NCBI GenBank assembly: GCA_002356215.1
Contig: AP017959.1
Coordinates: 1,426,001-1,490,000, forward strand
DNA length: 64,000 bases
Direction: 5' to 3'
Source: [Synechococcus] sp. NIES-970
GTDB taxonomy: Bacteria; Cyanobacteriota; Cyanobacteriia; Cyanobacteriales; MRBY01
The notes under the pieces are model-generated. The model ran no database searches and was not told the DNA's origin. It saw only the letters and a program-made list of their open reading frames with translations. The position numbers and the translations under genes are program-made. Shown here piece after piece: positions 35,881 to 38,187 of this stretch; positions within the stretch are counted from its first letter, which is position 1; each line of letters starts with the position of its first letter.

Positions 35881-36696
35881 TTACTCATCGACAAAAATGA
35901 AGCTGCTCCCCCAGGGGCCATAGTCCGCACTGACTACGCCGTTGCGATCGCCGCCGCTGTAGCTATCTTCCCCTGGGGTAATTTCGATAGTGACGGGGCC
36001 CCCTGCGAGGGCGGTAATTTTTCCGGCATGAACCGCAGCGACACAGATGGCAGAATCGTTGGTATAGGTATCTGTGCCCCAGATTAGGGCTTGGGTTTGG
36101 AGTTCGGCCACTGCTGGACAGGTGAAACGGTAGCGATCGCCTATATTTTCGCCAATGCTAAAAGAGCCTGGTGTAGAATCCCAGCGGATGGTTGGCGGCT
36201 GGTTCTGGTCGGAGGCGATCACCTCCGGGAAACGAAAACTATGCTCCCAAGGGCCATAGTCATCGGTGGTCACTTCATTTTGGCTGCTGCCTGTATAAAA
36301 ATTCTCACCGGCCAACACTTCGAGGCTGAGGTCTCCCCCGGTTTCTGCCGTAAAAAGCCCCGCATGGACGGCCGCTGTACAAATGGAGGAATCGCTGGTG
36401 TAAATCCCTGTGCCCCATACTGGCTGATTGGCACTGCCTGGGGGACAGGAAAACTCAAAGGTCTGGCCTAATTGCCCTTGGATTTCAAGGCTGATCGGCG
36501 TGGCACTCCATTCTAGGGCCGTAAAGGTGAGTTCAGGGGCAGGCGCGGGTGTATCTGGGGTAGGTGTTTCGCCTGGAGAAACAACTACACCGCCAGAGCT
36601 TGGGGAAACAGCACTCTGGTTATTACAGGCAGCGAGGGAAGTAATGAGGGCGATCGCCCCAAAGCTGATCAAGGGGAGGGGGTGTTTCATGGTCAT
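35881..36696 (-). CDS. Lipoprotein with two LCCL-like domains
   Basis: The 271-aa product starts with a lipoprotein signal (hydrophobic about residues 8-22, then AACNNQS, the lipobox cysteine near residue 24), followed by a Pro/Thr/Ser-rich linker. Two repeats of about 95 residues follow. The first has WGTGIYTSDSSICTAAVHAG, then ENFYTGSSQNEVTTDDYGPW. The second has WGTDTYTNDSAICVAAVHAG, then EDSYSGGDRNGVVSADYGPW. The pattern WGT-x-x-Y-x-x-D-S-x-I-C-x-A-A-V-H-A-G and the second cysteine in FSCPPG/FTCPAV match the LCCL domain known from Limulus factor C and cochlin. Function in bacteria is unknown; a binding role on the cell surface or in the periplasm is likely. It lies 66 bases downstream of the DUF212 gene. 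Confidence 0.85.
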   Translation of the reverse strand: MTMKHPLPLISFGAIALITSLAACNNQSAVSPSSGGVVVSPGETPTPDTPAPAPELTFTALEWSATPISLEIQGQLGQTFEFSCPPGSANQPVWGTGIYTSDSSICTAAVHAGLFTAETGGDLSLEVLAGENFYTGSSQNEVTTDDYGPWEHSFRFPEVIASDQNQPPTIRWDSTPGSFSIGENIGDRYRFTCPAVAELQTQALIWGTDTYTNDSAICVAAVHAGKITALAGGPVTIEITPGEDSYSGGDRNGVVSADYGPWGSSFIFVDE

Positions 36697-36762: not shown

Positions 36763-37218
36763 TTAGATCAATGGACCGTTAGCGAAAAAGGCGATCGCAA
36801 TCCCCAAAGACAGCCCCACAAAAACCTGGATCGGCGTGTGACCCAATAATTCCTTCAGGCGCTCTTCGCTAAATTCTTTTTCCTGGAACATATCGTCGAT
36901 GATCTGGTTGAGGATCCGGGCCTGCTTCCCCGCTGCTTGGCGGACTCCCGCTGCGTCATACATCACGATTACCGCAAATAGGCAGGCGATCGCAAATTCA
37001 GAGCTGTCCCATCCCTTCGCTTGGCCGACCCCCGTTGCGAGCGCACCAACAAGGGCAGAGTGGGCGCTGGGCATCCCCCCGGCACTAAAGAGGGAACGGA
37101 TGCTGGTTTTTTGGTAGCGGATCAGATCAATGGGAATTTTCAGCAGTTGCGCCGTGACGCAGGCCACTAATGCCACGATCAAGATGTGATTTTGGAAAAC
37201 TGCACTGAAATTGTCCAT
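36763..37218 (-). CDS. DUF212 (YuiD-like) divergent PAP2 family membrane protein
   Basis: A 151-aa membrane protein related to acid phosphatase/vanadium haloperoxidase folds. It shows FSAGGMPSAHSALVGALATGVG (about residues 45-66) and VIVMYDAAGVRQAAGKQA, the defining DUF212 motifs, with about four helices. The phosphatase chemistry is not established for the family. It follows crtE by 21 bases on the same strand, an arrangement that recurs in cyanobacteria as far as I recall. A role on polyprenyl diphosphates is an attractive guess but unproven. Confidence 0.88.
   Translation of the reverse strand: MDNFSAVFQNHILIVALVACVTAQLLKIPIDLIRYQKTSIRSLFSAGGMPSAHSALVGALATGVGQAKGWDSSEFAIACLFAVIVMYDAAGVRQAAGKQARILNQIIDDMFQEKEFSEERLKELLGHTPIQVFVGLSLGIAIAFFANGPLI

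Positions 37219-37239: not shown

Positions 37240-38187
<948 letters not shown>

What the first reader, a model, noticed from the sequence alone, without database searches (positions are those of the whole stretch)
35881..36696. Cyanobacterial lipoprotein made of two LCCL-like domains
The mature protein consists of a linker and two repeats, each with the W-G-T...Y...D-S-x-I-C-x-A-A-V-H-A-G signature and a paired upstream cysteine. LCCL is best known from animal extracellular proteins (cochlin, factor C). A surface lipoprotein built only of two such units suggests a bacterial ligand-binding use that has not been described to my knowledge.
Basis: partly seen in the sequence, partly recalled or inferred. 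Interest (0 to 1): 0.6.

Follow-up and report, generated by a model that had tools for sequence, protein, structure and literature searches.

The report
Cyanobacterial lipoprotein with two LCCL domains
A small exported, lipid-anchored protein of a cyanobacterium consists of two copies of the LCCL domain, a domain usually discussed for animal and malaria-parasite proteins but in fact common in many bacterial phyla; the identification is solid and mostly ordinary, and what the bacterial versions bind is unknown.

Summary
The gene at 35881-36696 (minus strand, 271 aa) encodes a predicted lipoprotein (lipobox LAA|C24) with an acidic Pro/Ser/Thr linker and two true LCCL domains (Pfam PF03815, 1.8e-43). 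The AlphaFold2 model matches the solved cochlin LCCL domain (1JBI, TM 0.86, 2.0 A).

The claim that such bacterial proteins are exceptional does not hold. A narrow scan of one-genome-per-species contigs found 168 relatives; the 80 kept, plus locally found ones, give 88 proteins and 162 domains from about 16 bacterial phyla. Nearly all look exported, and 65 of 88 contain little except LCCL domains. Within Cyanobacteria the domain is rare (8 of 386 sampled genomes) but present in 5 of 6 genomes of this genus, at a fixed place behind crtE-DUF212.

New detail: the two cysteines of each domain are present or absent together (146 both, 15 neither, 1 single), predicting disulfides C84-C106 and C193-C218.

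Most likely role: non-enzymatic envelope binding/adhesion module; ligand not identified. Direct analogy to heparin or LPS binding is weak: the mature protein carries -24 charge, and isolated cochlin LCCL does not bind GAGs.

The parts
35881..36696 (-). Whole gene: predicted lipoprotein of 271 aa with two LCCL domains
   Evidence: dN/dS about 0.15
36628..36696 (-). Signal peptide (residues 1-23)
   Evidence: hydrophobic stretch and lipobox LAA|C; no dedicated signal-peptide predictor was available
36625..36627 (-). Cys24, predicted lipidated residue (mature N-terminus CNNQ)
   Evidence: lipobox rule; inference
36517..36624 (-). Pro/Ser/Thr/Gly-rich linker (residues about 25-60), low model confidence
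   Evidence: sequence; pLDDT 49-70 for model residues 21-50
36235..36489 (-). LCCL domain 1 (residues 70-154)
   Evidence: Pfam PF03815, 80.5 bits; pLDDT mostly above 90
35899..36156 (-). LCCL domain 2 (residues 181-266)
   Evidence: Pfam PF03815, 70.8 bits; pLDDT mostly above 90
36445..36447 (-). Cys84, predicted disulfide partner of Cys106
   Evidence: co-occurrence of the two cysteine columns in 162 domains, two concordant changes on the tree
36379..36381 (-). Cys106 (SSIC), predicted partner of Cys84
36118..36120 (-). Cys193, predicted disulfide partner of Cys218
36043..36045 (-). Cys218 (SAIC), predicted partner of Cys193
36763..37218 (-). DUF212 (divergent PAP2 family) gene, 66 bp upstream on the same strand
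   Evidence: Pfam PF02681 4.6e-52; synteny with the LCCL gene in all 5 LCCL-positive genomes of the genus
37240..38148 (-). Polyprenyl synthetase (crtE-like GGPP synthase) gene, 21 bp upstream of DUF212; possible co-transcription
   Evidence: Pfam PF00348; synteny; operon is inference

Best explanation
It is an envelope lipoprotein whose mature part is a flexible linker plus two LCCL domains, each closed by one disulfide (C84-C106, C193-C218). It most likely acts as a non-enzymatic, two-site binding/adhesion module displayed from a membrane, holding a surface or matrix component (a glycan or another envelope molecule), with the tandem giving avidity. Shown: gene, domain identity, predicted fold, tandem arrangement. 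Strongly inferred: export, lipidation, disulfides. Inferred only: binding function. Ligand and membrane side: unknown.
For: LCCL by Pfam 1.8e-43 and by fold to 1JBI, TM 0.86, rmsd 2.0 A, E=3.9e-7; model mean pLDDT 86, over 90 through most of both domains. Of 88 bacterial LCCL proteins, 84 have an N-terminal hydrophobic export-type segment (29 with a lipobox); the other 4 are cut or apparently misframed at their start. 65 of 88 hold little besides LCCL. Where there are partner domains they belong mainly to surface and binding proteins: SLH and trypsin (L041), PAN (L034), cohesin (L037), BspA-type LRR (L090), OmpA (L078), Laminin_G_3 and Ig (L089). Cysteine columns co-occur 146 both/15 neither/1 single. 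Eukaryotic LCCL proteins are extracellular and reported to interact with bacterial surfaces (PMC10892792; akhirin LCCL binds bacteria, PMC12839204).
Against: No ligand is shown for any bacterial LCCL. Isolated cochlin LCCL does not bind GAGs (PMC9987951), so a lectin role of the domain itself is not established even in animals. Domain charge varies from -19 to +8 across the family, so no common polyanion-binding surface. No recurring gene partner across phyla apart from neighbouring LCCL genes. Localisation is predicted from sequence alone.
Confidence: 0.5

Rival explanations
1. A structural or scaffolding lipoprotein: the LCCL pair mediates protein-protein contacts within the envelope (as the LCCL-related region of Rxt3 sits in HDAC complexes and Plasmodium LCCL proteins work as a complex), not ligand recognition.
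For: Rxt3 is the only other solved relative found and works inside a protein complex; Plasmodium LAPs operate as a complex (PMC11285972); the LCCL+OmpA fusion in L078 suggests an envelope-bracing context.
Against: No conserved partner gene across loci; the protein evolves faster than its neighbours (about 67-69% identity against 72-97%), unusual for an obligate fixed interface.
Confidence: 0.27
2. A binder of anionic surface polymers (LPS phosphate, sulfated polysaccharide), by direct analogy with factor C, CRISPLD2 and cochlin.
For: CRISPLD2 is described as an LPS-binding protein (PMC3683062) and the factor C LCCL as involved in LPS binding (PMC9333281); all eight DFNA9 LCCL mutants of cochlin showed reduced GAG binding (PMC9333281), and G87, G88 and I/V109 among those sites are conserved in bacteria (92%, 98%, 97%).
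Against: Mature protein net charge -24, pI 4.05; domains -11 and -6. Cochlin LCCL alone does not bind GAGs.
Confidence: 0.13
3. A lineage-specific gene of marginal importance: acquired once, duplicated internally, tolerated, with no important envelope role.
For: 8 of 386 sampled cyanobacterial genomes carry the domain; one congener lacks it; fastest-evolving of the eight genes compared.
Against: Kept in 5 of 6 congeners at the same place under purifying selection.
Confidence: 0.1

Closest known systems
LCCL domain of human cochlin (PDB 1JBI; Pfam PF03815)
   Same: Fold (TM 0.86, rmsd 2.0 A, 31% identity); core residues G63, Y67, S71, A76, A77, H79, G81, G88 at 98-100% in bacteria.
   Different: Cochlin has four cysteines, the window domains two; W in place of Y62; no vWA domains; lipid-anchored rather than secreted matrix protein.
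Bacterial LCCL proteins of other phyla
   Same: Exported or lipid-anchored, one to five LCCL domains, most often two; the two-cysteine form is the majority (122 of 162).
   Different: Others have no cysteines (VTG form) or four; some are fused to SLH, PAN, LamG/Ig, OmpA, LRR.
Rxt3 (fungal Rpd3L/SIN3L subunit, PF08642; 8I03, 8GA8)
   Same: Related by profile (1e-16) and by fold in part.
   Different: Subunit of a nuclear histone deacetylase complex; only a partial match.
Plasmodium LAP/CCp proteins, CRISPLD2 and Limulus factor C
   Same: Carry LCCL domains in secreted or surface proteins (PMC10892792).
   Different: Large multidomain eukaryotic proteins; L089 (LamG+LCCL+Ig) and L041 (trypsin+LCCL+SLH) only recall some of their domain pairings.

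Membership tests
LCCL domain (PF03815) | Score above the curated Pfam cut-off | tested here: met
   147.1 bits against 22.6; two stretches
LCCL domain (PF03815) | Motif YxxxSxxCxAAVHxG with the conserved histidine | tested here: met
   YTSDSSICTAAVHAG and YTNDSAICVAAVHAG; H conserved in 158 of 162 bacterial domains
LCCL domain (PF03815) | LCCL fold | tested here: met
   AlphaFold2 model against 1JBI, TM 0.86, E=3.9e-7
Animal-type four-cysteine LCCL module | Four conserved cysteines, two disulfides (as described in PMC10892792) | tested here: not met
   Two cysteines per domain. This is the majority bacterial form (122 of 162), alongside four-cysteine forms (24) and cysteine-free forms (15). 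The cysteine-free L092 is also predicted as LCCL fold (TM 0.79), so the count separates sub-types and does not exclude the domain from the LCCL family, whose Pfam cut-off and fold it meets
LCCL proteins | Extracytoplasmic location | tested here: inconclusive
   Signal peptide and lipobox read from sequence; no experiment
Bacterial lipoprotein | N-terminal signal peptide ending in a lipobox with cysteine | tested here: met
   SLAAC, Cys24; also SLGAC in the PCC 7117 and G002 orthologues
LPS/GAG-binding LCCL proteins | Binding of LPS or sulfated glycan | not testable with these tools
   Indirect evidence unfavourable: net charge -24; isolated cochlin LCCL does not bind GAG

The most novel reading that the evidence does not exclude
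Bacterial LCCL proteins are a large, functionally uncharacterised class of envelope recognition proteins in which a two-cysteine domain with a single disulfide between the CP and SxIC cysteines is the basic form and the animal four-cysteine domain is one of several add-ons; animal immune LCCL proteins would then use a module that bacteria themselves employ for surface recognition.
Probability: 0.2. Interest if true: 0.6.

Novelty: new member of a known kind. Interest (0 to 1): 0.3.

Why it matters
LCCL is studied almost only in deafness, innate immunity and malaria transmission. Small bacterial proteins made only of LCCL domains should be easy to express and would let the intrinsic binding activity of the domain, still unclear in animals, be measured without flanking vWA or other domains. 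The disulfide prediction from cysteine co-variation is directly testable by mass spectrometry.

Tried and rejected
Chance resemblance or a non-LCCL repeat: rejected. Recent import from an animal: not supported; the cyanobacterial domains sit among other bacterial ones and the family spans about 16 phyla, although no eukaryotic sequences were put in the tree. Phage or plasmid origin: no phage record matches, three plasmid records with remote LCCL, one IMG/VR contig. Conserved gene partner as a clue to function: none across phyla; the recurring neighbours were related Rhodobacterales loci, common ABC ATPases and further LCCL genes. NCBIfam: nothing. First genome-contig scan with the single protein found nothing, probably because its patterns were too specific; an alignment with cysteine-free domains gave no usable pattern.

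Full report
What is there. The gene at 35881-36696 on the minus strand encodes 271 aa. The N-terminus MTMKHPLPLISFGAIALITSLAAC is a lipoprotein signal with Cys24 as the predicted lipidated residue; a Pro/Ser/Thr/Gly-rich acidic linker follows, then two domains of about 90 residues. Pfam scores both as LCCL (PF03815, 1.8e-43, 147 bits, cut-off 22.6), placed at 36235-36489 and 35899-36156. The related Rxt3 model also hits (1e-16). The nearest solved sequence is cochlin LCCL, 1JBI (4e-10; 1.7e-18 with a profile). An AlphaFold2 model from a 40-row alignment has mean pLDDT 86, above 90 through most of both domains; the low pTM (0.54) suggests that the relative orientation of the domains is not determined. 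Foldseek returns 1JBI first, TM 0.86, rmsd 2.0 A, then Rxt3.

Where it occurs. In the genus 5 of 6 genomes carry the domain; in a sample of 386 genomes of the phylum, 8. A scan of genome contigs with two short LCCL patterns gave 168 confirmed relatives, of which 80 were kept. The titles of those 80 name Cyanobacteria, Acidobacteriota, Chloroflexota, Pseudomonadota, Actinomycetota, Myxococcota and other Deltaproteobacteria, Bacteroidota, Gemmatimonadota, Nitrospirota, Verrucomicrobiota, Planctomycetota, Spirochaetota (Leptospiraceae), Bacillota (Syntrophomonadaceae), Eremiobacterota, Schekmanbacteria and others. The patterns demand WGT.Y or S.IC.AAVH, so this is a lower bound, biased towards cysteine-containing domains. 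Together with local loci, 88 proteins hold 162 domains: 32 with one, 40 with two, 15 with three, 1 with five. 84 of 88 have an export-type hydrophobic N-terminal segment (29 with a lipobox by a simple rule of my own; some start codons are uncertain), and the remaining four start off the contig or in an apparently broken frame; 65 have fewer than 170 residues outside LCCL. So the architecture described as remarkable is the common bacterial one.

Local evolution. The order crtE-DUF212-LCCL is kept in all five LCCL-positive genomes of the genus (families). In G004 and in Limnothrix sp. RL_2_0 (G005) the gene at this place is a one-domain protein with an N-terminal HHxP-repeat region; in the window genome, G002 and G003 (PCC 7117) it is the two-domain lipoprotein. 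G002 and G003 have in addition an HHxP one-domain gene elsewhere. In a tree of 158 domains, window domain 1 groups with the HHxP one-domain proteins (98/88, starred), and both window domains with these form one group of 10 rows with modest support (65/86). This fits one acquisition by the lineage and internal duplication, but 97 columns for 158 rows leave deep forks unresolved. The gene is the fastest evolving of eight neighbours (67-69% identity, dN/dS about 0.15; dS near saturation).

Cysteines. In 162 bacterial domains the cysteine of the CP motif and that of S-x-I-C are both present in 146, both absent in 15, single in 1; the single one (L052, first domain) lies at what looks like a broken frame start. 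On the tree this needs two changes for each column, only one independent contrast lying on strongly supported branches, so the statistical weight is small although the agreement is complete. In 24 domains a third cysteine stands either two columns before or five columns after the first, and all 24 also have a fourth, 12-18 residues upstream; only 5 of 122 two-cysteine domains have any upstream cysteine. By eye, three of those five (L065, L066) have a cysteine in the last strand instead. Parsimonious reading: a core disulfide between the CP and SxIC cysteines, and an optional second disulfide tying the N-terminal cysteine to one of several places. The spacing between CP and SxIC cysteines is mostly 22 in both two-cysteine and cochlin-like bacterial domains, so the window cysteine corresponds to the second, not the third, cysteine of the animal motif. 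From memory, UniProt gives cochlin pairs C1-C2 and C3-C4; I could not check this, the structure paper is not held, and if it is right the bacterial single disulfide is a rearranged one. A cysteine-free protein (L092) is also predicted as LCCL (TM 0.79 to 1JBI).

What conservation says. Columns matching cochlin G63, Y67, S71, A76, A77, H79, G81 and G88 are 98-100% conserved in bacteria. Of the cochlin positions mutated in DFNA9 deafness and tested for GAG binding in PMC9333281, G87 and G88 are 92 and 98% conserved, I109 is V or I in 97%, W117 is aromatic in 92%, P51 is 63%, while V66, V104 and A119 are not conserved. These are most simply fold-critical sites.

How it likely works. Exported, tethered, without a recognised catalytic domain, repeated in tandem and elsewhere fused to surface-type domains (SLH, PAN, cohesin, BspA LRR; OmpA, Laminin_G_3 with Ig), it is most likely a binding/adhesion module of the envelope. 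The ligand cannot be named. The popular analogy, recognition of LPS or sulfated glycans, is weakened by two facts: the mature protein has net charge -24 and pI 4.05, and domain charge varies from -19 to +8 in the family; and isolated cochlin LCCL did not bind GAGs, the activity depending on vWA1 (PMC9987951). A scaffolding role is the main rival.

Novelty. The Pfam family recognises these bacterial domains directly, so their existence is no discovery. [quoted passage not shown] subscription papers were not searched. I rate it a new member of a known kind, with the cysteine pattern and breadth of bacterial LCCL proteins as the useful by-product.

Noticed in passing
L007/L021, L010, L003, L006/L046: One-domain LCCL paralogues in the genus carry N-terminal HHxP repeats (for example AHHQPTTQISHHQPS), possibly metal-binding; none was found in the window genome, where the place behind DUF212 is taken by the two-domain lipoprotein.
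   Followed up: partly
window 1-64000: GCGATCGC (HIP1) occurs 119 times against 0.7 expected from shuffles, the known cyanobacterial over-represented octamer.
   Followed up: no
L041:3-2492: A Nitriliruptoraceae contig (protein cut at its 5' end) encodes trypsin-like protease + LCCL + SLH repeats, recalling the protease-LCCL pairing of Limulus factor C.
   Followed up: no
L089:4030-7608: A Verrucomicrobia protein joins Laminin_G_3, a cysteine-free LCCL and Ig domains, a combination reminiscent of eukaryotic adhesion proteins.
   Followed up: no
L017:1200-1355: An IMG/VR contig encodes a cysteine-free LCCL domain, and BFVD holds a phage protein with an LCCL-like fold (Erwinia phage Deimos-Minion A0A173GFW8, E=5.8e-5).
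   Followed up: no
L065, L066: Myxococcal LCCL domains with an upstream cysteine apparently paired to a cysteine in the last strand (W-x-C-S-F), a further disulfide variant seen by eye.
   Followed up: partly
L103:2915-4303 and plasmid NZ_CP113952.1: A Rhodococcus megaplasmid carries a DUF6777-LCCL fusion protein (L103) next to a PknD-type kinase gene; a second Rhodococcus plasmid has a similar LCCL match.
   Followed up: partly
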